Assembly: GCF_003710085.1 (NCBI RefSeq)
Contig: NZ_CP033324.1
Coordinates: forward strand, 1,116,001-1,180,000
Length of the DNA: 64,000 nt
Reading direction: 5' to 3'
Origin: Nocardioides pantholopis
GTDB taxonomy: Bacteria > Actinomycetota > Actinomycetes > Propionibacteriales > Nocardioidaceae
Part shown: positions 15,421 through 58,765 of the stretch, piece after piece
Layout: each line of letters starts with the position of its first letter
How positions within the stretch are numbered: position 1 is the first letter of the stretch
Position numbers and translations under genes: made by a program
The notes under the pieces: generated by a model
Told to the model about the DNA's origin: nothing
The model's database searches: none
The model's input: only the letters and a program-made list of their open reading frames with translations

Positions 15421-15447
15421 GGCATGCGGAACCCCAGAGAGGCGACC

Positions 15448-23215: not shown

Positions 23216-23244
23216 GAGCTCCTCCTGCATCTGTTCCATGTTGT

Positions 23245-37473: not shown

Positions 37474-38178
37474 TTAGGCGGCGCCGGAGCCCTCGCGGTT
37501 GGCGAGCGCGGTCAGCATCGCCTGCTGGCTGCTGTCCAGGTGGGCGATCCAGGCGGCCTTGAGGCCCTCGGCGTCGCGCGCGGCGGCCAGGTCGAGGAGC
37601 TTGCGGTGCTCCTCGATGCGGATCTGCTGGGTCTCCGGCTCCCGGTCGATGTTGTCCATCAGCAGGTGGAGGTACCGGTCGGAGGACTTCCACAGCAGCT
37701 CGAGCACGCGCCGGTCGGCGGTGCCGAGCACGTCGGCCAGCATCGCCGCGTGGAACGCGTGGTGCTTCGCGGCCAGGGCGGCGGGCTCCCGGACGATGTC
37801 GACGTACTCGGCCAGCGCGCGCTCGGCGTCGGCGAGGCGCTCCTCGGTCATCGTGGCCGTGGCGCGCAGCGTCATCTCGCCCTCGATGAGCTTGCGCAGC
37901 TCGTAGATGTTCGTGAGGTCCTCGGCGCTGAGCGAGGCGACCAGCGCGGAGCGGCCGGGGCGCAGGCTGATGACGCCCTCGCTCTCCAGGCGGCGCAGGG
38001 CCTCGCGGACGGGGATGTGGCTCACCGCGAACTGCTCGCACAGGTCCACGATCGAGACCGCGGACCCGGGCGCGATGTCGCCGTTGAGGATCGCCCGGTG
38101 GAGCTCGTCGGTGACCCGGTCGACGAGCGACTGGTGGGCGATCGGACGGACCGATGTCGAGGCGCCCGCTCTGCTCAT
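37474..38178 (-). CDS. GntR-family transcriptional regulator (FCD/VanR-like)
   Basis: 234 residues. Winged helix at about 15-80 (FAVSHIPVREALRRLESEGV), then an FCD domain with metal-binding positions in HHAFHAAML and EEHRKLL. Divergent from the flavin-reductase operon. The intergenic region has two AT-rich elements (38219-38230 and 38329-38339), fitting auto-regulation plus control of that operon. Candidate regulator for the other ATAT-N3-ATAT sites. Confidence 0.9.
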   Translation of the reverse strand: MSRAGASTSVRPIAHQSLVDRVTDELHRAILNGDIAPGSAVSIVDLCEQFAVSHIPVREALRRLESEGVISLRPGRSALVASLSAEDLTNIYELRKLIEGEMTLRATATMTEERLADAERALAEYVDIVREPAALAAKHHAFHAAMLADVLGTADRRVLELLWKSSDRYLHLLMDNIDREPETQQIRIEEHRKLLDLAAARDAEGLKAAWIAHLDSSQQAMLTALANREGSGAA

Positions 38179-41037: not shown

Positions 41038-42542
41038 CCGCCGCCTCCGAGGCGCCGGTGCGGGGCGAGCGGATCGACCTGCCCGCCGTCGAGCAGCTGG
41101 TCGCCGGCACCTGGAGCGTGCCCGGGGCCCGGCTCGACATGGTGCTCGAGGACCCCTACCTCGGCGTGCCTCTCGGCAACGCCGTGGCCAGCACCGACGC
41201 GGACGTCGAGGCGGCTGCGGCCGCCGCCGACGCCGTCCACACCAGCGGCGCCTGGGCCGACGTCCCCGTGGAGCGGCGCGCCGAGATCCTGGACGCGGTC
41301 GCCGACGCCCTGGAGCCCGAGCTCCCGCGCCTGGCGGCCCTCGAGGCGTTCGCGACCGGGGTCCCGGTCAGCCAGACCGGCATCGTCGGCGTGATCGTGC
41401 CGGGCGCCTTCCGGCTCGCGGCGCAGATGCTGCGCAACGGCGTGCTCCTGGAGACCCTCCAGGGTGAGAACGGCCAGCCGGTCGAGGTGCACCGTCTTCC
41501 GCTCGGCCCCGCCCTGGCGCTGGTGCCGTGGAACGCCCCGGCTCCGATGGCGGCGCACAAGATCGCCAGCTCGCTGGCGGCCGGTGCCCCCACGATCCTC
41601 AAGCCCAGCGAGTACGCGCCGTACGGCACGACCGAGCTCGCCCGGGTCGTCGACCGGGTGCTCACCGCCCACGGCGCCCCGGCCGGCACGCTCCAGGTCG
41701 TCCAGGGCGGCGCCCACCAGGGCGGCGCGCTGGTCACCGACCAGCGCATCCGTGCTGTCACGTTCACCGGCGGGCTCGTCGGCGGCCGGGCGATCGCGGC
41801 GGCCTGCGCGGCGAACTTCACGGCGCTCCAGCTCGAGCTCGGCGGCAACAACCCGCTGGTCGTCATGCCGGACGCCGACCCCGCCGACGCCGCGCGCGCG
41901 GCGGTCGACCTGCTCACCACCCTCAACGGCCAGTGGTGCCGCGCCCTGGGTCGCCTGGTGGTCCCGGCGGAGCTCGCCGACGAGATCGTCGAGCTCGCCC
42001 TCGGCCACCTCGCGCAGCTGCGCGCCGGCGACCCCCTCGACCCGGCGACCGAGCTCGGCCCGATCGTGCACTCGGGGCACCTGGCGCGGCTGCGCGAGGA
42101 GCTCACGATCCGCGAGGGCGCGGGCGGCACCGCGCGCAGCGCCACCACGCTGCCCGACGGCCCCGGCCACTTCCTGGCACCCACGCTGGTGACCGGCGTG
42201 CCCTCGCAGGCCGCCACCGAGGAGATGTTCGGTCCGCTGGCGACCGTGCACCCCTACACCTCCGTGGACGAGGCGATCGAGCTCGCCAACGCGACGCCGT
42301 TCGGGCTCGAGGGCTACGTGCTCGGAGCCGACACCGACGCCGCGCTGGCCGTGGCCCGACGGGTCCGCGCGGGCGAGGTGAAGGTCAACGGCTCCACGAT
42401 CATGAGCCTGCACCTGATGACGCCCCGCCCGGCGTGGGGCTGGTCCGGGATGGGCGAGGAGGGCACGGTCGAGACCATCCGGATCTTCACCGGTGCCCGG
42501 GTCGTCGGGGTCGAGGGCGGCTTCGCCCTCCACCGCCGGTGA
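41034..42542 (+). CDS. Aldehyde dehydrogenase family protein (1)
   Basis: 502 residues, 4-bp overlap. Motifs: VPWNAPAPMAAHKIASSL, TFTGGLVGGRAI, the Glu region LELGGNNP, and the catalytic Cys in NGQWCRALGR (an unusual flanking sequence compared with the common GQVC). NAD(P)-dependent oxidation of an aldehyde to an acid is expected. It is the third gene of the 38366-46191 operon. Confidence 0.9.
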   Translation: MTAASEAPVRGERIDLPAVEQLVAGTWSVPGARLDMVLEDPYLGVPLGNAVASTDADVEAAAAAADAVHTSGAWADVPVERRAEILDAVADALEPELPRLAALEAFATGVPVSQTGIVGVIVPGAFRLAAQMLRNGVLLETLQGENGQPVEVHRLPLGPALALVPWNAPAPMAAHKIASSLAAGAPTILKPSEYAPYGTTELARVVDRVLTAHGAPAGTLQVVQGGAHQGGALVTDQRIRAVTFTGGLVGGRAIAAACAANFTALQLELGGNNPLVVMPDADPADAARAAVDLLTTLNGQWCRALGRLVVPAELADEIVELALGHLAQLRAGDPLDPATELGPIVHSGHLARLREELTIREGAGGTARSATTLPDGPGHFLAPTLVTGVPSQAATEEMFGPLATVHPYTSVDEAIELANATPFGLEGYVLGADTDAALAVARRVRAGEVKVNGSTIMSLHLMTPRPAWGWSGMGEEGTVETIRIFTGARVVGVEGGFALHRR

Positions 42543-43468
42543 CCAGCGGCCCGCTCCGGGCCGCCCCGGCCGGGGCTCCCGACCGGCTGCGGGCCCTGCT
42601 GGCCGCTGACGACCTGGTGCACTTGCCGGGAGTCCACGACGCGGTCAGCGCCCGGCTCGCCCGGCGCAGCGGAGCCCGCGCCGTGCACCTCTCGGGGGCC
42701 GCGGTCTCGATCTCCGAGCTGGGCGTGCCCGACCTGGGCTTCGTGCACGGCACCGACATCGCCCGGCGGGCGGCGCTGGTCGCGGCCTCGCTGGACGGCG
42801 TACCGGTGCTGGCCGACGCCGACACCGGCTACGGCAACGCCCTGCAGGCGCGCCACACCGCGCTCGGCTACGCCGCCGCTGGCGCGGCCGGCCTCCACCT
42901 GGAGGACCAGGCCTCGCCGAAGCGGTGCGGGCACCTGGCCGGCAAGGCAGTGATCGGGCGCGCCGAGGCGGTGCAGAAGGTCCGCGCCACTGTCGACGCC
43001 GGCACCGCGCTCGTGGTCGTGGCCCGCACCGACGCCTTGTCGGTGGAGGGTCTCGGCTCGGTGGTCGAGCGCTGCGTGGCGTTCGCCGACGTCGGCGCCG
43101 ACGCGGTCTTCCCCGAGGGGGCCGCGCTGGCCGACCTGGAGCAGGTGCGCGCCGCCCTGGACGCGGCCGGCCACCGGCTGCCACTGGTCTGGAACCGGTC
43201 CGAGGCCGCGGGGCCGGTCGAGTCCGGCCCGACTCCGGCCCAGCTGGCCGAGGTCGGCGTCCGGGCGGTCATCCACCCGGTGTCCGCGCTCCTGGCCGCC
43301 GCCCGCGCCATGGAGCGCGTCTACGCCGCGATCGCGGAGTCCGGCTCCGCGGCCGGCACCGAGCGCTGGGAGTGGTCGGCCCTCACCGGGCTGGTCGGCC
43401 AGCCCGAGCTGCTCGACGAAGAGCTGCAGTACGCCGTCGCCGAGGACCCGTCCTCGGCGCACCTCTGA
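42539..43468 (+). CDS. Isocitrate lyase/PEP mutase family lyase (2-methylisocitrate or dimethylmalate lyase-like)
   Basis: 309 residues from GTG 42539 (4-bp overlap). The signature KRCGH with the catalytic Cys is present (SPKRCGHLAGK), along with DADTGYGNA and EDQA metal-site strands and VVARTDAL. The family splits 2-methylisocitrate, 2,3-dimethylmalate, oxaloacetate or related C-C bonds. A dimethylmalate-lyase-like reaction would suit alkyl-substituted malates formed from substituted maleimides, giving pyruvate and a short acid. The exact substrate is not determined. Confidence 0.85.
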   Translation: MTSGPLRAAPAGAPDRLRALLAADDLVHLPGVHDAVSARLARRSGARAVHLSGAAVSISELGVPDLGFVHGTDIARRAALVAASLDGVPVLADADTGYGNALQARHTALGYAAAGAAGLHLEDQASPKRCGHLAGKAVIGRAEAVQKVRATVDAGTALVVVARTDALSVEGLGSVVERCVAFADVGADAVFPEGAALADLEQVRAALDAAGHRLPLVWNRSEAAGPVESGPTPAQLAEVGVRAVIHPVSALLAAARAMERVYAAIAESGSAAGTERWEWSALTGLVGQPELLDEELQYAVAEDPSSAHL

Positions 43469-43489
43469 GCACGTCTGAAAGGGAACCCG

Positions 43490-44755
43490 ATGACCAGCAC
43501 CCCTGGCACCCCCGCCCCCGACCACGCCACCGTCCTCGTGGCCGGCGCCGGTGCGGTCGGCCTGACCGCCGCCCTGGTCGTCGCCCGGGCCGGTGTGCCG
43601 GTGACCGTCCTGGAGGCCGGCTCCGGCCTCTCGACCGAGTCCCGGGCCTCGACCTTCCACCCGCCGAGCCTGGAGATGCTCGACGACCTCGGCGTCCTCG
43701 AGCCGCTGATGGAGCGCGGCATCGTGTCCACCGGCTTCCAGTACCGCGACCGGCGGACCGGCCCGATCGCCGACCTGGACCTGGGCGTCCTCGCGGAGGA
43801 CACCCGGTTCCCGTTCCGGGTCCAGTGCGAGCAGTCCAAGCTCACCCCGATCCTGCTCGAGGCGCTGCAGCAGCTCGACCACGTGACCGTGCACTTCGAT
43901 CAGCGGGTGGTGCGGGCCGAGACCACCGCGGAGTCGGCGACGCTGACCACCGAGGCCGGCGACGTGTTCACCGCCGACTGGGTGCTCGGCGCCGACGGCT
44001 CGAACTCGCAGGTGCGCCAGACCGCTGGCTTCAGCTTCGAGGGCATGACCTACCCCGAGCGCTTCCTGGTCGCCTCGACCACCGAGGACCTCGAGACGAT
44101 CCTGCCGGGCATCTCGGCCGTCAACTACGTCTTCGACCCGACCGAGTGGCTGGTCCTGCTCCGCACCCCGGAGCACTGGCGGATCCTGTTCCCGACCGAC
44201 CAGGACACCCCCGACGAGGTCGAGATCGACCCCGCCCGGATCCAGGAGCGGCTCGCCGGCGTCGCCGACCTCGGCCGTGCCTGGGACGTCCTGCACACCA
44301 CGCTCTACCGGGTGCACCAGCGGGTGGCCGACACCTTCCGCAAGGACCGGCTGATCCTGATGGGCGACGCCGCCCACATCAACAACCCGCTCGGCGGCAT
44401 GGGCATGAACAGCGGCGTCCACGACGCGATGCTCGAGGCCCTGGCGCTGGTCGGCGTGCTCGACGGCTCGGCCTCGCTCGACGACCTCGACGAGGTCTGC
44501 GAGGCCCGCCGCCAGGTGGCGCTGTCGTACGTCAAGACGATCACCCACGACAACTGGGAGAAGCTGCGCCAGGACGACCCGGAGGCCCAGCGGGCCTACC
44601 ACGACGAGCTGCGCGCGCTGGCCTCCGACACCGCGAAGATGCGCCGCCACCTGCTCAACACCTCGATGATCAACTCGCTGCGCGACGGCAAGGTCGTGGA
44701 CATGGTCGGCGTCGGGGCCGGGGCCGGGGCCGGGGCCGGGGGAGCCTCCGCGTGA
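43490..44755 (+). CDS. FAD-dependent monooxygenase (PF01494-type hydroxylase)
   Basis: 421 residues; ATG after GAAAGGGA. The FAD-binding GAGAVGLTAAL is near residue 18, the DG motif is in LGADGSNSQVR, and the GD motif in GDAAHINNPLGGMGMNSG. It has no C-terminal thioredoxin-like extension. It is a p-hydroxybenzoate-hydroxylase-type enzyme using NAD(P)H and oxygen, probably hydroxylating or oxidising an aromatic or pyrrolic ring. A GAGAGAG repeat closes the protein. Confidence 0.9.
   Translation: MTSTPGTPAPDHATVLVAGAGAVGLTAALVVARAGVPVTVLEAGSGLSTESRASTFHPPSLEMLDDLGVLEPLMERGIVSTGFQYRDRRTGPIADLDLGVLAEDTRFPFRVQCEQSKLTPILLEALQQLDHVTVHFDQRVVRAETTAESATLTTEAGDVFTADWVLGADGSNSQVRQTAGFSFEGMTYPERFLVASTTEDLETILPGISAVNYVFDPTEWLVLLRTPEHWRILFPTDQDTPDEVEIDPARIQERLAGVADLGRAWDVLHTTLYRVHQRVADTFRKDRLILMGDAAHINNPLGGMGMNSGVHDAMLEALALVGVLDGSASLDDLDEVCEARRQVALSYVKTITHDNWEKLRQDDPEAQRAYHDELRALASDTAKMRRHLLNTSMINSLRDGKVVDMVGVGAGAGAGAGGASA
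44713..44740 (+). repeat. Hexamer repeat GGGGCC at gene end
   Basis: About four GGGGCC units coding a Gly-Ala run just before the stop of the FAD monooxygenase. Confidence 0.7.
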
Positions 44756-46191
44756 GGATCGAGCGCGAGAACCCGGCCCGCACCGACGAGGTCGTCGGCA
44801 CGGTCGCGGTGGCGGACGCCGACGCGGTCGACGCCGCCGTACGCCGCGCGCGCTCGGCGCAGGCCGCCTGGGCGGACACCGACCTCGCCCACCGCGCGGA
44901 GCTGCTGCGCCAGGGGGTCGCCCGGCTGCGCGAACACCTCGAGGAGCTGGCCGAGCTCACCGCCCGGGAGACCGGGAAGGTGCTCGCGGACGCGCGCGGC
45001 GAGGCCGGCTTCGCCGCGACCGTGCTCGGCTTCTACGCCGACCGCGGCGAGGCGCTGCTGACCGACGGCGGGTACGACGACCAGCGGGGCCGGATGGTGG
45101 TTCGGCACCGCCCCTTCGGCGTGGTCGCGGCCGTGACGCCGTGGAACGCCCCGCTGATCCTGACCATGCTCAAGCTGGCGCCCGCCCTGGTGGCCGGGAA
45201 TGCAGTGGTCGTCAAGCCCTCGCCGCTGGCACCGTTCGGCGTGAGCCGGCTGCTGGAGCTGGTCGCCACGGGCCTGCCCGAGGGCCTGGTCCAGGTCGTC
45301 CACGGGGGAGCGGAGACGGCCTCGGCGCTGGTCGCCCACCCGGGCGTGGACCGGGTGGCCTTCACCGGCGGCGACGCCGCCGGCCGGGCGATCGCCGGCC
45401 TGGCGGCCCGCGCGCTCACCCCCAGCGTGCTCGAGCTCGGCGGCAACGACCCGGCGGTCCTGCTCGACGACGTCGAGCTGGGGGAGGCGGCGATGGAGCG
45501 GCTGGTGATGGCGACGTTCGCCACCAGCGGCCAGGTCTGCATGGCGGTCAAGCGGCTCTACGTGCACCGGTCCCGCCTCGACGAGGCAGTGGACGCGTTC
45601 TGCGCGGCCGCCGACCGGGTGCTGCGCCTGGGGGACCCGCTGCACGCGGGCTCCAGCGCGGGCCCGGTGGTCAGCGCGGCCTCCGCGGAGCGGGTCGAGG
45701 GGCTGGTCGACGAGGCCCGCGCGGCGGGCGCCTCGGTGCTGCCGCTGGGCGTCGTCGACCCCGACACCGACCTCTCCCGCGGCTACTACGTGCGTCCGAC
45801 GCTGGTGCTCGGGGCGGCCGAGGAGTCCCGGATCGTCGCCGAGGAGCAGTTCGGCCCGACGCTGCCGGTGCTCGCCTTCGACTCGGTCGAGGAGGTCGTG
45901 TCCCGGGCGAACGCCGGGGAGCTGGGCCTGGGGGCGTCGGTGTGGTCCGCCGACGAGGACCGCGCCTTCGACGTGGCCCGCCGCCTCGAGGCCGGCTTCG
46001 CGTTCGTCAACACCCACAACCGCACCGGCATGGCGCTGCACGCGCCCTTCGGCGGGGTCAAGCGCTCCGGCTGGGGCCGCGAGTACGGCGACGAGGGGCT
46101 CATGGAGTACGTCCAGCCCTGCGTCGTGCACGCCCCGGCCGTGTTCCGCGCCGGGGCCGCGGGCCTCGCGGCGAACGCCTATCCGGGCTGA
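44752..46191 (+). CDS. Aldehyde dehydrogenase family protein (2)
   Basis: 479 residues from GTG 44752 (4-bp overlap with the monooxygenase). Canonical set: TPWNAPLILTMLKLAPAL, FTGGDAAGRAI, ELGGNDPAV and the catalytic Cys in SGQVCMAVKR, plus EEQFGPTLPVL. It resembles benzaldehyde/vanillin or succinate-semialdehyde dehydrogenases. Last gene of the operon that starts at 38366. Both aldehyde dehydrogenases could also oxidise phytol-derived aldehydes. Confidence 0.92.
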   Translation: MRIERENPARTDEVVGTVAVADADAVDAAVRRARSAQAAWADTDLAHRAELLRQGVARLREHLEELAELTARETGKVLADARGEAGFAATVLGFYADRGEALLTDGGYDDQRGRMVVRHRPFGVVAAVTPWNAPLILTMLKLAPALVAGNAVVVKPSPLAPFGVSRLLELVATGLPEGLVQVVHGGAETASALVAHPGVDRVAFTGGDAAGRAIAGLAARALTPSVLELGGNDPAVLLDDVELGEAAMERLVMATFATSGQVCMAVKRLYVHRSRLDEAVDAFCAAADRVLRLGDPLHAGSSAGPVVSAASAERVEGLVDEARAAGASVLPLGVVDPDTDLSRGYYVRPTLVLGAAEESRIVAEEQFGPTLPVLAFDSVEEVVSRANAGELGLGASVWSADEDRAFDVARRLEAGFAFVNTHNRTGMALHAPFGGVKRSGWGREYGDEGLMEYVQPCVVHAPAVFRAGAAGLAANAYPG

Positions 46192-46277: not shown

Positions 46278-47087
46278 ATGAGCCAGAACCTCAAGTTCGT
46301 CCAGGAGTTCCTGGACGAGGCCGGACCCACGGATGTCTCGGCGACGTTCGCCGACTGGACAGCTCTCGTGGACCGGCTGGCCGCCAAGGTCAAGGACCGG
46401 TTCGAGCTCCACCGCGACCCGTCGACCGACGCGCTGGAGTCCTTCGCCGCCGAGAACGGGCCGAAGGGCAGCATCCGCGGCTACACCGGTCCCGAGATCG
46501 ACTGGATGATCCACTCGCACATGGAGAACGCCGCCGCCGGCTTCGTCAACGTGCACCTCACCATCTGGCTCGGCCCGCAGGTCAAGGTCCCGCACTTCGG
46601 CATGGCGCTGGGCGCCTTCCCGCAGGGCTGGCTCTTCCTCGACAGCGTCCCGCGCTCGTACCTGATGGAGGACACCGAGTCCTACGACAAGTACTACGAG
46701 CCGCTGAACGCCGAGTGGGAGCGGGTCCAGGCCGAGAACGACTTCATCGAGCCGTTCGTCAGCCGCAGCGCGTTCGTGCGCGCCAGCCTCTCGCCGACCG
46801 CGATGTGCTTCATGGCCCCCGGCGACGGCCGGCTGACCGAGCTGGTCACCGACGTCGCCGAGCGCCACCTCGACCGCTGGCTGCAGTGGGTCGACGAGGC
46901 CGAGCGGGTCCCCGAGGAGGAGCAGGCCGCCCTGGCCGCCACCGACGAGGCGATCCGTCGCAACATCGCCGAGCGGGACCCCGCCAACGTGATGGGCGAG
47001 CGGTTCTTCGGCCCCGAGATGACCCAGGACCTGGTCCGCGCCCTGTGGGGTGGCGGCCGGGTGCTGCCGCGGCCGCTCGAGCGCTGA
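46278..47087 (+). CDS. RCCR-like (red chlorophyll catabolite reductase family) protein 1
   Basis: 269 residues. From memory, plant RCCR has YVSPSLFVRSAFSPTA and later RRDKSFRRKSIE; here residues 160-175 are FVSRSAFVRASLSPTA and 222-230 TDEAIRRNI, with matching P-x-F (VPHFGMAL, 105-112), DKYYEPL and LDRWLQWV stretches. RCCR reduces the oxidised open-chain chlorophyll product and belongs to the ferredoxin-dependent bilin reductases. The acid at the reductase position (Glu/Asp in the family) is Ala110 here, while Asp223 is kept, so it may be a chaperone, a different reductase or a ligand-binding homologue. First gene of an eight-gene operon. Confidence 0.75.
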   Translation: MSQNLKFVQEFLDEAGPTDVSATFADWTALVDRLAAKVKDRFELHRDPSTDALESFAAENGPKGSIRGYTGPEIDWMIHSHMENAAAGFVNVHLTIWLGPQVKVPHFGMALGAFPQGWLFLDSVPRSYLMEDTESYDKYYEPLNAEWERVQAENDFIEPFVSRSAFVRASLSPTAMCFMAPGDGRLTELVTDVAERHLDRWLQWVDEAERVPEEEQAALAATDEAIRRNIAERDPANVMGERFFGPEMTQDLVRALWGGGRVLPRPLER

Positions 47088-48082
47088 TGGCGCAGCCACC
47101 GCTCGTCCGGGCACTGCGGGACGCCGTGCGCGTCCCGGGTGCCGTCGCGCCCTACGACACCGTCCACCTGACGGTGCGCTACCCGGCGCGTCCGGCGGAG
47201 ACCACCGCCGAGCGGATGAGCGGTGTGCTGCCCGCCCACGCGGACGGCGCGCCGTACCCGGTCGTGGTGGTGCTGCCCGGCGTCAACGTCGCGGCCGAGG
47301 GCTACCGGTGGCTGGCCACCGCGCTGGTCGAGGCCGGCTACGTCTGCGCGACCTTCGACTGGGTGGGGGAGCTCTTCCCCGGCCAGCACGGGCTCACGCC
47401 GGGGGTCGACCTGGCGGCGGTCACGCCCGAGGCGTACGGCCAGCGCCCCACCACCCCGGCCCTGGCGCCGGTGCTCGAGGCGCTCGCGCGCCTGGGCGCC
47501 GACGGCGTGCTGGCCGGCCTGCTCGACCTGGACCGGGTGGCCCTGCTGGGACACTCGGCCGGCGGCACCGTGGCGCTGCAGTCGGCGAGCCCGGCGTGGT
47601 TCCCCGGCGTCCGCGCGGTCGTCACCTACGGCGCCCACACGATGGCCTCCCAACAGCTCGGCTTCCCGGCCGGCACCCTGCTGCCGTCCCCGGCGCAGGC
47701 GCCGGTCCTGATGGTCACCGGCGAGCTGGACGGCGTGGTCGCCGCGAGCGCCGTGCGGTACGGCGAGGACGCCGGCGCGCCCGCGCACGACCCGGTCACC
47801 CGCACCTGGGCCGAGGCGTTCCCCGACGGCACCGAGGCCTGGCTCGCGGTGCTCGCCGGCGCCGGGCACATGCTCCCGATCGACCCCGACGACCCGACCT
47901 CGGCCCGCGGCTTCCTGGAGGAGCCGCTGACCGCCGACCAGGACTCCCTGCGGGTCGTGCTGGTCGACCTGGTCACGACCTTCCTGCACGCACGCCTTCG
48001 CGACGACCCGGCCGCGAAGGCATCCCTGGACGACCTCTGCACCAACCCCGCACCCGTATTCGCCGATCTTCGGCGACGCTAG
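47087..48082 (+). CDS. Chlorophyllase/dienelactone-hydrolase-like alpha/beta hydrolase
   Basis: 331 residues; TGATG overlap with the RCCR-like gene. The triad is visible: Ser157 in GHSAGG (chlorophyllases have GHSRGG), Asp215 in GELDG and His261 in AGAGHML, with VVVLPGVN as oxyanion strand and GYVCATFDWVGELF after it. No signal peptide. In the context of the neighbours it is the natural candidate to split the phytyl ester or another propionate ester of a tetrapyrrole; a generic esterase role is possible. Confidence 0.8.
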   Translation: MAQPPLVRALRDAVRVPGAVAPYDTVHLTVRYPARPAETTAERMSGVLPAHADGAPYPVVVVLPGVNVAAEGYRWLATALVEAGYVCATFDWVGELFPGQHGLTPGVDLAAVTPEAYGQRPTTPALAPVLEALARLGADGVLAGLLDLDRVALLGHSAGGTVALQSASPAWFPGVRAVVTYGAHTMASQQLGFPAGTLLPSPAQAPVLMVTGELDGVVAASAVRYGEDAGAPAHDPVTRTWAEAFPDGTEAWLAVLAGAGHMLPIDPDDPTSARGFLEEPLTADQDSLRVVLVDLVTTFLHARLRDDPAAKASLDDLCTNPAPVFADLRRR

Positions 48083-48093
48083 GAGGACCACCG

Positions 48094-49347
48094 ATGTTCA
48101 AGAACTTCTGGTACGCCGTCGAGTTCAGCTCGGATGTGGTTGCCGGCCAGCCCAAGAAGGTCAAGCTGCTCGGCCAGCAGCTGGTCGTCTACCGCAAGAC
48201 CAGCGACAACTCCCTGGTCGCGATGTCGGACCTGTGCGTGCACCGCGGTGCCGCGCTCTCCGACGGCAAGGTCAAGGGCGACTGCCTGGTCTGCCCGTAC
48301 CACGGCTGGGAGTACAACGCCGGTGGCGAGGTCACCAAGATCCCCGCGCACCCCGACAAGGGCATCCCGCGCAAGGCCCGCATCGACTCCTACCCGGTGC
48401 AGGACAAGTACAAGATGGTGTGGATCTACATGGGCGACCTCCCCGAGGAGGACCGCCCGCCGATCCCCGACTGGTCGGCTGTCGACGACACCGAGACCTA
48501 CGCCGCCGTCACCGGCAGCTTCCTGTGGAAGTCGAACTACGAGCGCATCCTCGAGAACGGCGTGGACGTCGCGCACACCCCGTTCGTCCACGGCGGCGTC
48601 TTCGGCAACCCGGAGAAGCCCGAGGTCCCCGAGTTCGAGATCGAGGAGAGCCCCTGGCACTGCAAGGTGTCGGTCAAGCTCAACCCGCCGAAGTCCAAGG
48701 GCCTGTGGGGCGTCATCAACCCCAACAAGCAGGACCTGAAGAACCGCCCGCAGGTGCCGGTCTCCACCACCTGGTGGCTGCCGAACATGATCCTGCTCGA
48801 GGTCGACACCCCGATGGGTGCGATGAAGATCTTCGACGTCAACATCCCGATCGACGAAGACACCACGATGGTCAAGTTCATCGCGCTGCGCACGTTCTTC
48901 AAGGGCAAGTGGGCCGACCGCGACGCCAAGCGCCGCGTCTTCAAGGTGCTCTACGAGGACCAGAGCATCGTGGACGCCGTTCGTCCCGAGCTGCTTCCGT
49001 TCGACCTCTCCGACGAGCTGCACGTCAAGAGCGACTACAACGCCGTCCTCTACCGCCGCCGTCGCCAGCAGCTCATCGACATGGGCTGGTCGGTCGAGGG
49101 CAACACGATCGTCGGCGAGGGCCCGGCGCGGGTCGAGGCGCGGGTCATCCCCTCGCCGATCCGCAAGGAGGTCCCCGAGCTCGCGAGCGCCTGGAACTTC
49201 AAGGAGGTCCGCAGCCGCGAGATCAAGGCCGGCCTCGCCGAGAAGGAGGCCGCGGCCAAGGACGTCGCGAAGTCCCGCACCAACGGCGCCAAGAACGGCG
49301 CCACCCCCACCGCTGCCCCCACCAAGAACGAGGACGTCAAGGCATGA
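48094..49347 (+). CDS. PAO-like Rieske non-haem iron oxygenase
   Basis: 417 residues; AGGAGG site. Rieske cluster Cys48-x-His50 and Cys67-x2-His70 (CVHRGAAL ... CPYHGW); mononuclear iron His161 and His166 with Asp158 and Asn155 (ENGVDVAHTPFVH), third ligand probably Asp289 (YEDQSIV). The architecture fits pheophorbide a oxygenase/VanA-type enzymes. Unlike plant PAO it has no membrane anchor and no C-terminal CxxC, but an Ala/Lys-rich tail. It would open a macrocyclic ring or O-demethylate; electron donors are not encoded here. Confidence 0.85.
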   Translation: MFKNFWYAVEFSSDVVAGQPKKVKLLGQQLVVYRKTSDNSLVAMSDLCVHRGAALSDGKVKGDCLVCPYHGWEYNAGGEVTKIPAHPDKGIPRKARIDSYPVQDKYKMVWIYMGDLPEEDRPPIPDWSAVDDTETYAAVTGSFLWKSNYERILENGVDVAHTPFVHGGVFGNPEKPEVPEFEIEESPWHCKVSVKLNPPKSKGLWGVINPNKQDLKNRPQVPVSTTWWLPNMILLEVDTPMGAMKIFDVNIPIDEDTTMVKFIALRTFFKGKWADRDAKRRVFKVLYEDQSIVDAVRPELLPFDLSDELHVKSDYNAVLYRRRRQQLIDMGWSVEGNTIVGEGPARVEARVIPSPIRKEVPELASAWNFKEVRSREIKAGLAEKEAAAKDVAKSRTNGAKNGATPTAAPTKNEDVKA

Positions 49348-50084
49348 GCCTGCCCGAAGCACTGTGTGTCGGCACCCTGGAAGAGATCGTCAAGCGCGGG
49401 AACCTGACCGAGGTCACCGGCGCCGACGGCGGGCCCTTCCAGGTCCTCGGGTCCGTCATGGGACCCGACCCGGTCGGGTCGGTCCGGATCTTCTCCGGGG
49501 AGAAGATCGGCAAGGTCGTCTACGTCGGCATTGTGGTGCCGCAGATCCAGATGGACAGCCACATGGTGTTCGCGTTCATGCCGGACGGCTCGCCGGTCCC
49601 GCACTACACGCTGGACTCGGTCCACGCCGGTGGGCACTTCGCCTTCCACCTCGACCTGATCCAGCGCGCCGACGCCGGCACGCACATGGTCTACAACGAC
49701 TGGGCGCACACGCCGCTGACCGAGACCTACGAGCAGATCAACGCGATGGAGGGCCTCTCCAAGGCGGCCCTGGAGCCGCGCCAGCTCACTGTCATGTCGT
49801 CGTGGATGGTGGCCAGCCGCGCCACCGAGGAGGCCTTCGGCCAGCTCGACGCGCCGGTCCGCGCCTACCTCGACCACTGGTTCTCCCTCGTCGAGGGCGA
49901 GGTGCCGGCCGAGGTGGCCGCCGACCTGGCCGACACCGACCTGGCCGACCGCGACGCCAAGAACCGCGCGCTGCTGTTCAGCCCGGCGGTCGACAAGGTC
50001 TGGGCCCAGATCTCGCGCCTGCTCACCGAGCCGGTGGCCGAGTCGATCCGCCTCCAGCTGGTCAACAACGAGATCCCTGGATGA
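49344..50084 (+). CDS. RCCR/ferredoxin-dependent bilin-reductase-like protein 2
   Basis: 246 residues, 4-bp overlap with the Rieske gene. The pattern P-x-[FY]-x-x-D-x-V around the catalytic Asp of bilin reductases is present as PHYTLDSV with Asp91, followed by FHLDLIQR. The late ADRDAKNR (Asp204) matches the position of the RCCR second acid, and ASRATEEAFGQLDAPVRAYL fits the central helix region. So this paralogue keeps the acids that protein 1 partly lost and is the better candidate for the active reductase. Ferredoxin would be expected as donor. Confidence 0.65.
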   Translation: MSLPEALCVGTLEEIVKRGNLTEVTGADGGPFQVLGSVMGPDPVGSVRIFSGEKIGKVVYVGIVVPQIQMDSHMVFAFMPDGSPVPHYTLDSVHAGGHFAFHLDLIQRADAGTHMVYNDWAHTPLTETYEQINAMEGLSKAALEPRQLTVMSSWMVASRATEEAFGQLDAPVRAYLDHWFSLVEGEVPAEVAADLADTDLADRDAKNRALLFSPAVDKVWAQISRLLTEPVAESIRLQLVNNEIPG

Positions 50085-51034
50085 GCGAGACCCAGGCCAG
50101 CGACTGGCAGAAGCGGATCGCGGGGGAGTGGCACGGCCGCCCGTCGCTGTTCGACGCCGAGGGCAACCACGTCGGCTTCGAGCGGATCGCCCGGGCGAGC
50201 GTGGTCGAGAACGGCGAGACCAGCTACTGGATGAAGAGCCAGCTCGAGGGCAGCGGACCGCTGCGCAACCGCCTCGAGGTGGGTGCGACGTTCAACTTCG
50301 GGATCGTGGACTCCGGCGAGAACCGGGTCTACGTCGGGCCGGACTTCTTCGGCACCGGGCAGCCGTACGGCACGCTGGTCGACGCGAACTACTACTCGCC
50401 GGCCTGGCAGGCCGACATGCACACCTGGAACCAGGTGCTGCCCGACGGCGAGACCCAGGTCTACTCCTCGATCCTGTACGACGGCTGGTCGGTCGTGGCG
50501 CTGTTCAACGGCGTCTACAAGCGGACCTTCGACCACGAGTCGAACCCCGAGACGCAGGCCTACGTCGAGGACTGGATCGCCGCCGAGACCCGGCGCGGTC
50601 CGGTCCCGCAGGTGCTGCCCACCAAGGAGGCCGGCAGCTACGCGGGCGTCCTCGCGGTGGTCGGCGAGGACCAGAAGCCGGTCGGCGAGGTGGCGGTGCG
50701 CATCGAGCACGAGCCGGTCGGCCTGCGCACGGTCCGGCACCGGGTGACCTGGTCGGGCGCGCTGGAGCGCTCCTACACCTACGAGCGGCAGCGCGACGGG
50801 GCCCGGGTGCTCTACGAGGGCCCCGAGGTCTACGGCAACGCGATGACCTTCGGCCGGGCGATCTTCACCAACCAGCACCTCGTCGGCCCGGACGCGACCG
50901 GCGTGGAGAAGATCCGTGGCCGCGAGTACGTCGTGGACCCCGAGACCCGTGACCTCGCGGTGGTCTGGCGGCTCTTCCACGGCGACCGCACCAGCCACTT
51001 CGTGCACGGCCTGCTGACCTGGGAGCCCCGATGA
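50081..51034 (+). CDS. Calycin/DUF3598-like protein, large form
   Basis: 317 residues, 4-bp overlap. GEWHG at 15-19 and DAEGN at 25-29 repeat the start of the small protein at 12923. Two beta-rich halves seem present (about 10-160 and 175-315, with TYEGPEV-like and AVVWRLFHGDRTSHFVHG stretches), which suggests two lipocalin-like barrels. No signal peptide. I infer cytosolic binding of a linear tetrapyrrole or its hydrophobic partner, but there is no direct proof. Confidence 0.55.
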   Translation: MSETQASDWQKRIAGEWHGRPSLFDAEGNHVGFERIARASVVENGETSYWMKSQLEGSGPLRNRLEVGATFNFGIVDSGENRVYVGPDFFGTGQPYGTLVDANYYSPAWQADMHTWNQVLPDGETQVYSSILYDGWSVVALFNGVYKRTFDHESNPETQAYVEDWIAAETRRGPVPQVLPTKEAGSYAGVLAVVGEDQKPVGEVAVRIEHEPVGLRTVRHRVTWSGALERSYTYERQRDGARVLYEGPEVYGNAMTFGRAIFTNQHLVGPDATGVEKIRGREYVVDPETRDLAVVWRLFHGDRTSHFVHGLLTWEPR

Positions 51035-51840
51035 GCGCCGGGTCGGGCCGCGTCGTCGTCGTCACCGGCGGCACCCGCGGCATCGGGCTGGGCCTGGCGC
51101 GGGAGTTCCTCGCCCGCGGCTGCCGCGTGGTGATCTGCGGCCGCACGACCGGCGCCGTCGACAAGGCCCTCGCCGAGCTCGGGCAGGGCGACCGGGCGAC
51201 CGGCCTGGCCACCGACGTCCAGGACCGCGAGGCGGTCCAGGCCCTGTGGGACCACGCCGTCGCGACCTTCGGGCGCGTCGACGTGTGGATCAACAACGCC
51301 GGACTCTCCGCTCCTCGCGGCCCGCTGCACACGGTGCCCACGGGCGCGGTGCGCGACGTCGTCGCGGTGAACCTGGTCGGTGCCCTCAACGGCAGCGCGG
51401 TCGCCTCGCAGGCGATGGCCGCGCAGTCCGGCGGCGGCTGGATCTGGAACATGGAGGGCTTCGGCTCCCGGGGCGAGCACCAGCCCGGCATGGCCGTGTA
51501 CGGCGCCTCCAAGCGTGCCGTGCAGTACCTCACCGAGGCCCTGGTCAAGCAGACCAAGGACACCGAGGTGAAGGTCGGCTTCCTCTCCCCGGGCATCGTG
51601 GCCACCGACCTGCTGGTCGGCGACTACACCGACGACCCCGACGGGTTCGACAAGGTCAAGAAGGTCTTCAACATCCTCGGGGACCGGGTCGAGACAGTCA
51701 CCCCGTGGCTCGCCGACCAGGTGCTCGCCGCCCGCAAGCACGGCACCCGCGTCGCGTGGCTGACCAAGACCAAGGCGATGCGCCGCTTCATGGGCGCCGG
51801 CTTCACCAAGCGCGACATCTTCGCCCCCGAGGCCGACTGA
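51031..51840 (+). CDS. NYC1/NOL-like (chlorophyll b reductase-type) SDR
   Basis: 269 residues, 4-bp overlap. SDR motifs: TGGTRGIG (12-19), NNAG (88-91), Tyr157 and Lys161 in YGASK. The wider segment is strikingly like plant NOL/NYC1 as I remember it: VWINNAG, GGGWIWNMEGFGS (plants GGHIFNMDGAGS), AVYGASK, FLSPGIVATDLLV (plants ASPGMVLTDLLL), FNILGDRVETV (plants FNIICELPETV). In plants this enzyme reduces the C7 formyl group of chlorophyll b. Placed beside Rieske and RCCR-like genes it supports a chlorophyll substrate. Confidence 0.8.
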   Translation: MSAGSGRVVVVTGGTRGIGLGLAREFLARGCRVVICGRTTGAVDKALAELGQGDRATGLATDVQDREAVQALWDHAVATFGRVDVWINNAGLSAPRGPLHTVPTGAVRDVVAVNLVGALNGSAVASQAMAAQSGGGWIWNMEGFGSRGEHQPGMAVYGASKRAVQYLTEALVKQTKDTEVKVGFLSPGIVATDLLVGDYTDDPDGFDKVKKVFNILGDRVETVTPWLADQVLAARKHGTRVAWLTKTKAMRRFMGAGFTKRDIFAPEAD

Positions 51841-52562
51841 TGCTGGCCGCCCAGGCGATCGACGTCTGCGCCGAGTACGACGTGGCGCTGGCCGTGGAGG
51901 ACTTCGTCCCCTGCGTGCTGGCCCTCGCGGCGCTCATCGTCCTGGCCCGGGCGGTCCGGATCAGGGTGCCGAGGGCGTACCGCGTCGCCCTGCTCGGCGG
52001 CCTGGTGATCTCCGCAGGCGGCTTCGGCAAGGCCACCTGGAAGCTCCTGGTCGCCACCGGCTGCTGGGAGTACCCCTGGCTCGAGGCGCTGCTGTTCCCG
52101 TGCCTGTCCTTCGGGTTCGCCGCCGTCGCGTGGGCGGTGCTCAGCGCCGTCAAGGGGCGCGAGGTCAAGCCGCTGTGGTTCGTCCTGTTCCCGCTCGCCG
52201 CGGGCGTGGGGTCGGCCTGGATGAGCATCTCGGCGGGCGAGTACCAGAACTGGCCGCTGCTCATCGGTGCCGCCGTGGGTGCCACCTTCCTGGGCATCAC
52301 GCTGGCCGTGACCGCGTTCAAGGCGGGCAAGCCCTCGGTCGGCGCGCTCTTCGTGTTCTACACGCTCGGCACGAACGTCCTGCCGCCCCTGGCGGCCCAG
52401 CCGAACCAGTCCGCCGAGCTGCAGTGGGCCGAGCAGCTCACCAACTCCGCAGTCCAGCTGTGCTTCCTCCTGGGGGCGCTCTGGCTGCGCGAGCACCTGA
52501 CCACGAAGGCGGCCCATGCGGGACTCGCAGCCGCCGAGAAGCAGACGGGAGTCACCGCGTGA
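51840..52562 (+). CDS. Multi-pass membrane protein of unknown function
   Basis: 240 residues, ATG overlapping the SDR stop by 1 bp. Six or seven hydrophobic segments (for example VPCVLALAALIVLARAV, WPLLIGAAVGATFLGITLAV and GALFVFYTLGTNVLPPLA). No transporter signature seen. It may be a permease-like or membrane-anchoring partner; the 4-bp overlap on its 3' side shows that it is co-expressed with the catabolic genes. Confidence 0.7.
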   Translation: MLAAQAIDVCAEYDVALAVEDFVPCVLALAALIVLARAVRIRVPRAYRVALLGGLVISAGGFGKATWKLLVATGCWEYPWLEALLFPCLSFGFAAVAWAVLSAVKGREVKPLWFVLFPLAAGVGSAWMSISAGEYQNWPLLIGAAVGATFLGITLAVTAFKAGKPSVGALFVFYTLGTNVLPPLAAQPNQSAELQWAEQLTNSAVQLCFLLGALWLREHLTTKAAHAGLAAAEKQTGVTA

Positions 52563-53308
52563 GCGCGGACCGCCTGGGCTGGCGCCGCAAGTTCGGCGTC
52601 ATCGCCCCCAGCACGAACACCATCGTCCAGCCCGAGTTCGACATGATGCGGGTCCCCGGCGTCACCTCGCACTACGGCCGGATCCTGATCCGCGACGGTC
52701 GGATCGCCGACGACGAGGGGATGGAGAAGCTGCTGGTCCAGATCCGTGCCTCCCTCGCCGACTGCGTCGAGGGCATCATGACGATGCAGCCCGACTACAT
52801 GGTCATGGGCATGAGCGCGGAGACCTTCTGGGACGGCGTCGAGGGCAACCGCGAGTTCGTCCGGCAGATCCAGGAGCTCTCCGGCGGGCTGGGCGTCGCG
52901 ACCGGCGCCGAGGCGTGCGAGCGGGCCCTGAAGCTGTACGGCGCGAAGAAGATCGCCGTGGTCACGCCGTACACGCCGATCGGGGACGCGAACGTCCGCA
53001 AGTTCTTCACCGAGATCGGCTTCGAGGTCGGGCAGATCAAGGGGCTGTGCGTGAACAGTGCCGTCGAGATCGCCCAGGTCTCGGAGAAGACCCTGCGCGA
53101 GTCGCTGGTCGAGATCAACGACTCCGACGTCGACGCGATCGTCCAGTGCGGCACGAACCTGTGCATGACCGAGCTGGCCGACGAGGCCGAGCGCTGGCTG
53201 GACAAGCCCGTGATCGCGATCAACGCCGCCACCTGGTGGATGGCGCTGCGCGAGAACGGCATCGACGAGCAGCTGCACGGCTTCGGCTCGCTGCTGCGCG
53301 AGCACTAG
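52559..53308 (+). CDS. Asp/Glu-racemase-superfamily enzyme (arylmalonate decarboxylase/maleate isomerase-like)
   Basis: 249 residues from GTG 52559 (4-bp overlap). The family fold is recognisable (FGVIAPSTNTIVQPEF, KKIAVVTPYTPIGDANVRKFF). Racemases and maleate isomerases use two Cys; here the first position is Met-Ser (VMGMSAETF, residues 82-90), and only the second Cys197 (VQCGTN) remains, the pattern of single-Cys arylmalonate decarboxylase. It is likely a decarboxylase or isomerase acting on a substituted malonate or maleate. Last gene of the operon. Confidence 0.8.
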   Translation: MSADRLGWRRKFGVIAPSTNTIVQPEFDMMRVPGVTSHYGRILIRDGRIADDEGMEKLLVQIRASLADCVEGIMTMQPDYMVMGMSAETFWDGVEGNREFVRQIQELSGGLGVATGAEACERALKLYGAKKIAVVTPYTPIGDANVRKFFTEIGFEVGQIKGLCVNSAVEIAQVSEKTLRESLVEINDSDVDAIVQCGTNLCMTELADEAERWLDKPVIAINAATWWMALRENGIDEQLHGFGSLLREH

Positions 53309-56612: not shown

Positions 56613-58028
56613 GTGATCCGGATGACATCCAAGAAGGCCGACGTCAGCCACCGGCAGCAGCTGCCGCGTGCGCGGTCCCAGCGCACCCCCTGGTGGCGCG
56701 ACAAGGCGGCCTCGATCCGCACCGGTGTGATCGCCGCCGGGGTCTCGCTGGCCCTGGCCGGGTGCGGCGCGCTGCTCCCGGGCGACGTGTCCGACGGCGC
56801 GAGCGCCGCCGCGCAGGGACCCGGGCCGGGCGTCACCGAGGACTCGGTCAAGGTCGTCTTCGTCGCGGTCGACCTCGACGCGGTCCAGGAGACCACCGGC
56901 TTCAAGACGGCCTCGGTCGGCGACCAGAAGAAGCAGATCAAGGCGCTCGAGACCTGGGTGAACGACAACGGCGGGCTGGGCGGTCGCAAGATGGAGGCGG
57001 TCTTCCGCCTCTACGACGCCCAGGCCGACTCGCCGGCTGCCGAGGAGCAGCTGTGCAACCAGATCACCCAGGACGACCGCGCGTTCGCCGTGGTCCTCAC
57101 CGGGCAGTACCAGACCAACGCCCGGCCCTGCTACGCCCAGCGCAAGACGCTGATGCTGGACGCCTCGCTGGTGGCCAGCGACGTCGAGTACTACGAGGAG
57201 CTCAGCCCCTACCTGTGGTCGGCGAGCTTCCCCGAGTACGCCACGTTCATCAAGTCGTTCGTGAAGGTCCTCGACGACGAGGGGTTCTTCGAGGGTGAGA
57301 AGAGCATCGGCATCGTCGGCGCCGACACCGACGCCAACCGGCGCACGGTCACCGACGTCGCGCTGCCCCTGCTGAAGGAGGCGGGCGTCGACGTCGAGGT
57401 CGGCTGGGTCGACACCACCGACATCGGCACCCTGTACGCCGGCCACGAGCAGGCGATCGACACCTTCCGCAGCAAGAAGGTCGACCGGGTCACCTTCTTC
57501 GGCGGCTCCCGGCTCGCCTCGATCTTCGCGACCGTCGCCGCGTCCAAGCAGTTCACGGCGCGCTACGCGATCTCCAGCTTCGACAACCCCTCGTTCTTCG
57601 TGAACAACCCGACCCTGATCCCGGACAACACGATGGACGGCATGGTCGGCGTCGGGTTCCACCCGCCGCAGGACGTCGCAGACGACCAGATGCCCTTCCC
57701 GACCGGCGAGACCGAGGTCGAGTGCCTCGACGTGTTCAAGGACGCCGGGGTCACCTTCGAGACCCGCGAGTCGGCGCGGGTGGCGCTGCCGTACTGCGAC
57801 GCGGTCAAGGTGCTCAAGATGGGCGCCGACAACGCCTCCGGTGACCTGAACGCCGGCACCTGGGCGGAGGCGGTGCACGCCAACGGCTCCGAGTTCCGCA
57901 CCGCCGCCGGCTTCGGTGGCGCGCTGGGCGACGGCGGCTTCGCCGGCGCCGGCGGCTACCGGGTGCTGAAGTACGACGACGGCTGCTCCTGCTTCGTCTA
58001 CGAGGGCGACGAGGTGCCGTTCGAATGA
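56613..58028 (+). CDS. Branched-chain-type ABC transporter substrate-binding lipoprotein
   Basis: 471 residues from GTG 56613. A long 35-residue basic N-region precedes the hydrophobic part; lipobox LALAGC with Cys51. The body is a periplasmic-binding-protein type I (LivJ/receptor-family ligand-binding) with GVTEDSVKVVFVAVD and KSIGIVGADTDANRR. It works with the ATPase and the fused permease downstream. The HAAT family often takes hydrophobic or aromatic ligands, not only amino acids. Confidence 0.9.
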   Translation: MIRMTSKKADVSHRQQLPRARSQRTPWWRDKAASIRTGVIAAGVSLALAGCGALLPGDVSDGASAAAQGPGPGVTEDSVKVVFVAVDLDAVQETTGFKTASVGDQKKQIKALETWVNDNGGLGGRKMEAVFRLYDAQADSPAAEEQLCNQITQDDRAFAVVLTGQYQTNARPCYAQRKTLMLDASLVASDVEYYEELSPYLWSASFPEYATFIKSFVKVLDDEGFFEGEKSIGIVGADTDANRRTVTDVALPLLKEAGVDVEVGWVDTTDIGTLYAGHEQAIDTFRSKKVDRVTFFGGSRLASIFATVAASKQFTARYAISSFDNPSFFVNNPTLIPDNTMDGMVGVGFHPPQDVADDQMPFPTGETEVECLDVFKDAGVTFETRESARVALPYCDAVKVLKMGADNASGDLNAGTWAEAVHANGSEFRTAAGFGGALGDGGFAGAGGYRVLKYDDGCSCFVYEGDEVPFE

Positions 58029-58765
58029 GCCCCACGACACCGGTCCTGGAGTGCGCCGGGATCCGCGCCTCCTACGGGCCGATGCAGGTGCTCTTCGATG
58101 TCTCGCTGACCGTCGGCCAGGGCGAGATGGTCGCGCTCATGGGGCCGAACGGGGTCGGCAAGAGCACGCTGCTGAAGGTGGTCGGCGGGTTGCTTCGCCC
58201 GACCGCCGGCACGGTGCGGCTCAACGGCGTCGACGTCACCGGGGTCGCCACCCGCAAGCGGGTCGAGCAGGGGCTGTGCCAGGTCGTCGGACAGTCGGCG
58301 TTCGGCTCGCTCACCGTCGCCGAGAACCTCACGATGCACGGCTTCACCGCCACCGACCGCCGGTGGGCCCGGGAGGCCGTCGAGGCCGCCCTGGGGGTCT
58401 TCCCCCGGCTCAACGCGCGCCGCAACCAGCAGGCCTCGACCCTCTCCGGCGGCGAGCGGCAGATGCTCGCGATCGCGAAGGCGATCGTCGCCGAGCCCAA
58501 GGTGCTGGTCATCGACGAGTTCTCGCTCGGTCTCGCCCCGGTCGTCGTGGGCGGCCTGATGGACCTGCTGCGCCGGCTCAACGAACGTGGCGCCGCCGTG
58601 CTGCTCGTCGAGCAGTCGGTGAACGTCGCCCTGTCGCTGGTCGACCGGGCCTACATGATGGAGAAGGGCGAGATCATCGCTGAGGAGCGCGCCGCGGAGC
58701 TGGCCGCCAACCCCGACCGGATCCGGGCGCTGATGCTCGGCGGGCACGCGGAGGTGGCCCGATGA
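58025..58765 (+). CDS. ABC transporter ATPase (LivF-like)
   Basis: 246 residues, 4-bp overlap with the binding protein. Walker A GPNGVGKS, signature LSGGERQ, Walker B VLVIDEFS and the H-loop region LLVEQSVNV are present. The second ATPase of the system is fused to the permeases in the next gene. Confidence 0.92.
   Translation: MSPTTPVLECAGIRASYGPMQVLFDVSLTVGQGEMVALMGPNGVGKSTLLKVVGGLLRPTAGTVRLNGVDVTGVATRKRVEQGLCQVVGQSAFGSLTVAENLTMHGFTATDRRWAREAVEAALGVFPRLNARRNQQASTLSGGERQMLAIAKAIVAEPKVLVIDEFSLGLAPVVVGGLMDLLRRLNERGAAVLLVEQSVNVALSLVDRAYMMEKGEIIAEERAAELAANPDRIRALMLGGHAEVAR

What the first reader, a model, noticed from the sequence alone, without database searches (positions are those of the whole stretch)
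46278..53308. A bacterial operon resembling the plant chlorophyll-breakdown (PAO/phyllobilin) pathway
Within one tightly overlapping operon I see homologues of four classes of plant chlorophyll catabolic enzyme: RCCR-like (46278, and a second at 49344), a chlorophyllase-like GHSAGG hydrolase (47087), a PAO-like Rieske oxygenase (48094) and a NYC1/NOL-like SDR (51031). Two calycin-like or membrane proteins and a decarboxylase/isomerase complete it. Any one alone could be coincidence; together they suggest a heterotroph that de-esterifies, reduces, ring-opens and reduces chlorophyll or another macrocyclic tetrapyrrole. I know of no described bacterial operon of this make-up.
Basis: partly seen in the sequence, partly recalled or inferred. 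Interest (0 to 1): 0.96.

Follow-up and report, generated by a model that had tools for sequence, protein, structure and literature searches.

The report
Bacterial tetrapyrrole pigment breakdown gene island
Many actinomycete bacteria carry the same compact gene island, built around relatives of the plant enzyme that reduces a chlorophyll breakdown product, and it likely lets them dismantle linear pigment molecules that would come from heme or chlorophyll.

The parts
46278..47087 (+). Gene A: RCCR/bilin-reductase family protein (269 aa)
   Evidence: PF06405 5e-18 and PF05996 1.4e-8; RCCR structures; in 80 of 80 loci by selection
47087..48082 (+). Gene B: alpha/beta serine hydrolase, GHSAGG; S157, D215, H261 invariant in 20 aligned members
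   Evidence: 77 of 80 loci
48094..49347 (+). Gene C: Rieske non-heme iron oxygenase, VanA_C type, not PaO type
   Evidence: 79 of 80 loci
49344..50084 (+). Gene D: second RCCR/bilin-reductase-fold protein by prediction (246 aa)
50081..51034 (+). Gene E: double calycin by model (DUF3598/BFA1-like fold), possible bilin carrier
51031..51840 (+). Gene F: NOL-clade short-chain dehydrogenase/reductase
   Evidence: 79 of 80 loci
51840..52562 (+). Gene G: membrane-like protein (by eye), no family
   Evidence: no Pfam; 41 of 80 loci by tblastn, 51 by clustering
52559..53308 (+). Gene H: Asp/Glu-racemase superfamily, nearest maleate isomerase and arylmalonate decarboxylase; Cys197 kept, first Cys absent
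   Evidence: 71 of 80 loci, not in the 7 Acidimicrobiia
35738..37420 (+). Gene N: nitrilase-superfamily (CN_hydrolase) protein, amidase by inference; directly before A in many other genera
   Evidence: 77 of 80 loci
38366..39703 (+). u1: flavin reductase with an HMGL-like C-terminal part
   Evidence: 29 of 80 loci
39700..41037 (+). u2: acyl-CoA-dehydrogenase-family protein, possibly a flavin monooxygenase
   Evidence: 50 of 80 loci
41034..42542 (+). u3: aldehyde dehydrogenase
   Evidence: 59 of 80 loci
42539..43468 (+). u4: PEP mutase/isocitrate lyase family, nearest methylisocitrate lyase (215 bits, equivalog cut-off 354)
   Evidence: 25 of 80 loci
43490..44755 (+). u5: FAD_binding_3 monooxygenase
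   Evidence: 61 of 80 loci
44752..46191 (+). u6: aldehyde dehydrogenase
   Evidence: 66 of 80 loci
37474..38178 (-). GntR/FCD regulator
   Evidence: orthologs in 8 loci
15424..16317 (+). IclR regulator
   Evidence: 25 of 80 loci
18198..19664 (-). Hydantoinase/allantoinase-like amidohydrolase (below equivalog cut-offs)
   Evidence: 7 of 80 loci, exactly the 7 Acidimicrobiia; beside the third RCCR copy in L127, L129, L136
19661..21124 (-). MmgE/PrpD family protein
   Evidence: the same 7 of 80 loci
21121..21951 (-). Cyclase-family hydrolase, weakly arylformamidase-like
   Evidence: the same 7 of 80 loci
22019..23230 (-). CoA-transferase family III
   Evidence: the same 7 of 80 loci
24982..25935 (-). 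HMG-CoA-lyase family protein
   Evidence: 279 bits, subfamily cut-off 246; 12 of 80 loci
56613..58028 (+). Conserved 471-aa protein without family
   Evidence: 12 of 12 regions around the third RCCR copy; no family
58025..58765 (+). ABC transporter ATPase, branched-chain amino acid type by its neighbour
   Evidence: 11 of 12 regions
58762..61653 (+). Branched-chain-amino-acid-type ABC permease/ATPase fusion
   Evidence: 12 of 12 regions
61726..62391 (+). Neocarzinostatin-family protein with LPXTG anchor motif
   Evidence: PF00960 63.3 bits, cut-off 25; 12 of 12 regions; only PF00960 match in the genome; 19 of 19 operon genomes against 7 of 226 without

Best explanation
This is a conserved actinobacterial gene island whose core operon encodes an RCCR homologue, a second protein predicted to share its fold, a Rieske oxygenase and a NOL-clade reductase, and it likely breaks down an open-chain tetrapyrrole (a bilin or phyllobilin) for carbon and nitrogen. 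Shown: gene content, conservation, family and predicted-fold assignments. Inferred, in order: a neocarzinostatin-family surface protein binds the pigment; a branched-chain-type ABC transporter imports it; the double calycin E carries it; the RCCR-fold proteins D, A and a third copy just outside the window reduce its conjugated bridges with ferredoxin electrons; the Rieske oxygenase C and flavin monooxygenases u2/u5 oxidise and cleave it; B removes esters and F reduces (or oxidises) a formyl or keto group. The pyrrolinone or maleimide pieces would then be opened by the nitrilase-type N, the hydantoinase-like hydrolase and the cyclase. The resulting alkylated C4 diacids would be processed by H (maleate-isomerase family), PrpD-like, CoA-transferase and PrpB/HMG-CoA-lyase-like enzymes and enter central metabolism. 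The bilin would come from heme or from chlorophyll; I cannot say which.
Confidence: 0.55

Rival explanations
1. A plant-like chlorophyll pathway: B de-esterifies, F reduces a chlorophyll b-type formyl group, the Rieske enzyme C opens the macrocycle in place of PAO, and A/D reduce the red product.
For: RCCR homologue, NOL clade, a Rieske oxygenase and a serine hydrolase in one operon; some B relatives match Chlorophyllase (12 of 20 at E up to 0.01, best 8.8e-8); 7 of 26 operon genomes lack a PF01126 heme oxygenase, so a bilin would have to come from elsewhere there.
Against: C is not of the PaO family (0 of 23; none in the genome); the window hydrolase scores 13.4 bits against the 26-bit chlorophyllase cut-off, and its family matches DLH (15 of 20) and PETase (14 of 20) models as well; heme oxygenase accompanies the operon in 19 of 19 sampled family genomes; a second NOL-clade SDR lies outside the island.
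Confidence: 0.2
2. The substrate is not a tetrapyrrole: an RCCR-like fold was recruited for another polycyclic or N-heterocyclic compound, degraded by the surrounding oxygenases, hydrolases and lyases.
For: Oxygenases, ALDHs and lyases are generic; C resembles SxtT, NdmA and VanA-type enzymes; A lacks an acid found in known bilin reductases; the fold exists in chloroplast motor-complex subunits.
Against: Three RCCR-family or RCCR-fold proteins, a NOL-clade SDR and a calycin resembling bilin lyases together; heme oxygenase co-occurrence.
Confidence: 0.2
3. A biosynthetic island that makes a pigment or chromoprotein-type product, with the neocarzinostatin-family protein as carrier of that product.
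For: PF00960 is named after chromoprotein apoproteins (recalled); 19 of the 26 family genomes that have it over cut-off are operon genomes, with a copy inside the island in each of the 19.
Against: Gene content is catabolic: ALDHs, C-C lyases, CoA-transferases, amidohydrolases, importers; I noticed no PKS- or NRPS-sized gene among the window and locus ORFs listed, but did not search for one.
Confidence: 0.05

Closest known systems
Plant PAO/phyllobilin pathway (CLH/PPH, NYC1/NOL, PAO, RCCR)
   Same: RCCR-family reductase and a NOL-clade SDR, with a Rieske oxygenase and a serine hydrolase beside them
   Different: Rieske enzyme not of the PaO family; hydrolase not specifically a chlorophyllase; three RCCR-family or RCCR-fold proteins; hydrolases and lyases that would go on to mineralise the product; bacterial operon
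Bacterial heme oxygenase plus FDBR (pre-PcyA clusters, PMC10151467, passages read)
   Same: FDBR/RCCR fold in non-photosynthetic bacteria; heme oxygenase co-occurs
   Different: No globin or V4R family among the 41 of 57 called window genes that I scanned with Pfam; A matches RCCR better than FDBR (65.7 against 35.1 bits); the surrounding genes are catabolic; heme oxygenase lies 2 Mb away
Nicotinate/maleamate- and hydantoin-type catabolism
   Same: Nitrilase/hydantoinase-type hydrolases, maleate-isomerase-family protein, PrpB/PrpD-type enzymes
   Different: H keeps one of the two cysteines of maleate isomerase; linked to RCCR-fold proteins

Membership tests
RCCR (PF06405) | Score above curated family cut-off (gene A) | tested here: met
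   65.7 bits, cut-off 24.9; third copy 54.3 bits
RCCR (PF06405) | Acid at RCCR Glu154 / FDBR Asp-99 position (Glu154 recalled; Asp-99 from PMC6755814) | tested here: not met
   Ala110, invariant in 26 rows; alignment-based
RCCR (PF06405) | Asp at RCCR Asp291 / FDBR Asp-219 position (Asp291 recalled) | tested here: met
   Asp234, invariant in 26 rows
RCCR (PF06405) | Reduces red chlorophyll catabolite | not testable with these tools
   needs enzyme assay
FDBR/RCCR fold (gene D) | Shared fold | tested here: met
FDBR/RCCR fold (gene D) | Pfam family score | tested here: not met
   no PF06405 or PF05996 hit at E up to 0.1
FDBR/RCCR fold (gene D) | Catalytic acid pair | tested here: inconclusive
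   Asp91 and Asp217, both invariant in 56 rows, fall at or within one or two residues of the two positions, depending on the alignment
PAO (pheophorbide a oxygenase) | PaO domain PF08417 | tested here: not met
   0 of 23 family members at E up to 0.01; none in the genome
PAO (pheophorbide a oxygenase) | Rieske cluster and mononuclear iron motif | tested here: met
   CxH...CxxH and DxxH...H invariant in 23 rows, PF00355 23 of 23
Chlorophyllase (PF07224) | Score above curated cut-off (window protein) | tested here: not met
   13.4 bits, cut-off 26; 12 of 20 members match at E up to 0.01, alongside DLH 15 and PETase 14
NYC1/NOL chlorophyll b reductase | Clade with NOL apart from other SDRs | tested here: met
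   100/100 clade with 13 plant NOL-type proteins (bootstrap not fully settled); 109 bits against 58 for the best SDR after the top two
NYC1/NOL chlorophyll b reductase | Relation to NYC1, and enzyme activity | not tested
   no NYC1 sequence included; no assay
Maleate isomerase | Two active-site cysteines (recalled) | tested here: not met
   second kept (Cys197), first replaced by Met in alignment with 2xed
DUF3598 (gene E) | Pfam sequence match | tested here: not met
Neocarzinostatin family (61726) | PF00960 above cut-off | tested here: met
   63.3 bits, cut-off 25

The most novel reading that the evidence does not exclude
A dedicated bacterial tetrapyrrole-mineralisation system: a cell-wall-anchored neocarzinostatin-family receptor captures pigment, an ABC importer takes it in, two or three divergent RCCR-fold reductases (A and D perhaps working as a pair) and a non-PAO Rieske oxygenase dismantle it, and amidases, isomerase and lyases carry the maleimide-type fragments into central metabolism. 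It would be, to my knowledge, the first genetically defined route from linear tetrapyrroles to central metabolites, and would place RCCR-type and NOL-type enzymes in heterotrophs without chlorophyll.
Probability: 0.4. Interest if true: 0.95.

Novelty: new variant of a known kind. Interest (0 to 1): 0.85.

Why it matters
Chlorophyll and heme are turned over on a global scale, yet what soil and marine bacteria do with the linear tetrapyrroles is, to my knowledge, without assigned genes. This island gives a defined set of about twenty-five genes, many of its hosts being named isolates, with a clear marker (the A-D pair), so the question becomes directly testable. It also bears on the origin of plant RCCR and NOL, and it offers the neocarzinostatin family a possible role outside antibiotics.

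Tried and rejected
PAO identity of the Rieske protein: rejected. Chlorophyllase identity of the hydrolase: not established (nearest solved structures are PETase-like at 6e-4). A relation of E to A or D: none by profile comparison (probability 0.1%). A relation of the DUF3598_N protein at 12923 to E by profile comparison: none (probability 2.4%). D by sequence against solved structures: nothing convincing; E likewise. tRNA scan and Rfam scan (gathering threshold) of the window: nothing. Plasmid records for D: no match. Promoter and terminator scan after H: nothing. NYC1 was not tested. Some capped tools were left partly unused (one protein search, two family scans, one fold search).

Caveats on the counts: the 80 loci are the best 80 of 141 confirmed stretches from one scan seeded by two conserved peptides of A; 61 were not fetched. 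Genes in loci were called by a home-made GC3-based caller, so I quote tblastn counts where possible; they differ somewhat (for example amidohydrolase 7, PrpD 6, cyclase 4, CoA-transferase 6 loci against 7 each). In the tree the row L081_F is a wrong gene (a minus-strand SDR, 36% identical), the rows L088 and L107 are the same gene, and some of the 13 plant rows are named only hypothetical by their sources. Alignment A4 contains one wrong 20-residue fragment (L054) and was not used further. Alignments A2 and A3 hold 55 of the 75 D and 53 of the 77 E relatives listed, A5 to A7 about 20 each. One search looked at 12 of the 18 other operon genomes. Literature searches show at most 8 to 20 papers of each result, so an earlier report may have been missed.
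Full report
Observation. The window is bases 1116001-1180000 of a 4.04 Mb single-contig genome; the closest named relatives of gene A are from Aeromicrobium and Nocardioides. Eight genes lie on the plus strand between 46278 and 53308 with gaps of -1, 11, -4, -4, -4, -1 and -4 bases. A second tight run, 38366-46191, ends 86 bases before the first gene.

The SDR. Plant NOL searched against the own genome gives 32 matches; gene F (109 bits) and one at C1:1720080 (116.5 bits) stand apart, the next having 58.3. F is 35% identical to Fragaria NOL over 252 residues. In a tree of 54 rows (53 different) the operon SDRs, the second own SDR and 13 plant NOL-type proteins form one clade (100/100, stem 1.44), with 26 other own SDR rows outside. 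One F row, L081, was a wrong gene and fell elsewhere, and the bootstrap had not fully settled. The second own SDR lies in a neighbourhood that reads, by eye only, like 5-oxoprolinase genes, so the subfamily is not a proof of chlorophyll work.

Rieske and hydrolase. All 23 C proteins scanned match Rieske and VanA_C; none matches PaO, nor does anything in the genome. The nearest solved structures are SxtDIOX, SxtT and NdmA. B keeps Ser-Asp-His in all 20 aligned members; 12 of 20 match a chlorophyllase model, but 15 match DLH and 14 PETase.

Conservation. A profile scan of a collection of 84,980 species genomes confirmed 141 relatives of A; I examined the best 80. By tblastn, of 80 loci: A 80 (by selection), C, D, E and F 79 each, B 77, nitrilase-type N 77, H 71, u6 66, u5 61, u3 59, u2 50, G 41, u1 29, u4 25, IclR 25. 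A-F are all present in 77 and collinear on one strand in 69; one locus (L055) has A without B-F, and two lack B. The hosts include Nocardioides, Mumia, Streptomyces, Actinomadura, Actinoplanes, Micromonospora, Catellatospora, Nocardia, Streptosporangium and 7 Acidimicrobiia MAGs, where the order is partly changed and H is not found. The island is rare: 3 of 396 sampled Actinomycetota genomes have A, and the same 3 have D, 1.3 to 2.3 kb away.

Larger unit. In the 7 Acidimicrobiia loci the operon sits beside orthologs (54-63% where called) of window genes that lie 23-28 kb upstream of A on the minus strand: hydantoinase-like amidohydrolase, MmgE/PrpD, cyclase and CoA-transferase, 7 of 7 each by tblastn. 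Among 245 genomes of the own family (Nocardioidaceae, inferred), 19 have A, and all 19 have a second PF06405 gene 17-26 kb away on the other strand. In the own genome this third RCCR-family gene is at C1:1183336-1184172, just past the window end. In the 12 other genomes that I read around it, it is present with an epimerase-like gene and, nearby, the ABC permease fusion and the neocarzinostatin-family gene (12 of 12 each), and a small ABM-family gene (10 of 12). That family (PF00960) is over cut-off in 26 of 245 genomes: 19 of 19 with A and 7 of 226 without (Fisher 7e-23, not corrected for relatedness). In each of the 19 the best match lies between A and the third copy. In Nocardia and Micromonosporaceae, 22 of the 80 loci hold 41 such genes, 9 of 10 scanned being over cut-off. 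In 16 operon genomes, 23 of 24 PF00960 matches are over cut-off and by position lie within about 20 kb of A; the other, below cut-off, lies elsewhere (positions compared by hand).

Source of the bilin. Heme oxygenase is present in 19 of 19 operon genomes of the family and in 102 of 226 others (Fisher 7e-7, not corrected for relatedness). Across families it is in 19 of 26 operon genomes tried, against 7 of 149 sampled phylum genomes, own included. In the own genome it lies 2 Mb away. This favours bilins but does not make heme the only source.

Active sites. FDBRs use an aspartate pair, Asp-99 and Asp-219 in GtPEBB (PMC6755814, passages read). A and the third copy have Ala or Val near the first position and keep the second. 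D has Asp91 and Asp217 at or next to the two positions, invariant in 56 rows. D therefore looks like the more canonical reductase, and A a divergent partner; this is inference from alignments.

Downstream chemistry (inference). N is a nitrilase-superfamily protein, 18198 is hydantoinase/allantoinase-like, u4 is nearest methylisocitrate lyase, all below their equivalog cut-offs, and 24982 is an HMG-CoA-lyase subfamily member. H is nearest maleate isomerase but keeps only one cysteine. Such a set would suit opening of maleimide or pyrrolinone rings and cleavage of the alkylated C4 diacids, as expected from broken tetrapyrroles.

Literature. Ten full-text searches (the top 1 to 20 listings of each seen) showed no bacterial operon of this kind. 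Passages of PMC10151467 describe pre-PcyA bilin reductases in heterotrophs, with RCCR as outgroup; passages of PMC2716323 describe RCCR-like genes in Nostoc and Anabaena. The library lacks most subscription journals. Databases already label some relatives of A as RCC reductase.

Verdict.

Noticed in passing
L003:5336-6172 (C1:1183336-1184172, minus), just past the window end: A second PF06405 gene, third RCCR-fold member of the island, beside an epimerase-like gene and a small ABM-family gene; accompanies A in 19 of 19 family genomes.
   Followed up: yes
61726-62391: Neocarzinostatin-family protein with LPXTG anchor motif; in the family sample PF00960 is over cut-off in 19 of 19 genomes with the operon and 7 of 226 without.
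   Followed up: yes
L115:8077-8871 (C1:1720077-1720871): A second NOL-clade SDR outside the island, between genes that look by eye like 5-oxoprolinase components.
   Followed up: partly
53301-53349: About five tandem copies of a 10-base unit (AGCACTAGCC) across the stop codon of gene H, followed by a GC-rich inverted repeat seen by eye shortly downstream.
   Followed up: no
38366-39703: Flavin reductase fused to an HMG-CoA-lyase-like C-terminal part; what the second part does is unclear.
   Followed up: no
12923-13375: Small DUF3598_N protein next to oligopeptide-type ABC genes and another CN_hydrolase at 13462-14478; profile comparison shows no link to gene E.
   Followed up: partly
56613-58028: A 471-aa protein with no family match that is present in 12 of 12 regions of the island in relatives.
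   Followed up: no
L064:13661-16525: Acidimicrobiia versions of the locus add a DUF3891 gene and several proteins without family on the opposite strand; one of them (14332-15258) is weakly E-like.
   Followed up: partly
L116:3884-7774 (C1:3177884-3181774): The heme oxygenase gene (7112-7774) is next to ABC transporter genes that look by eye like a heme importer.
   Followed up: no
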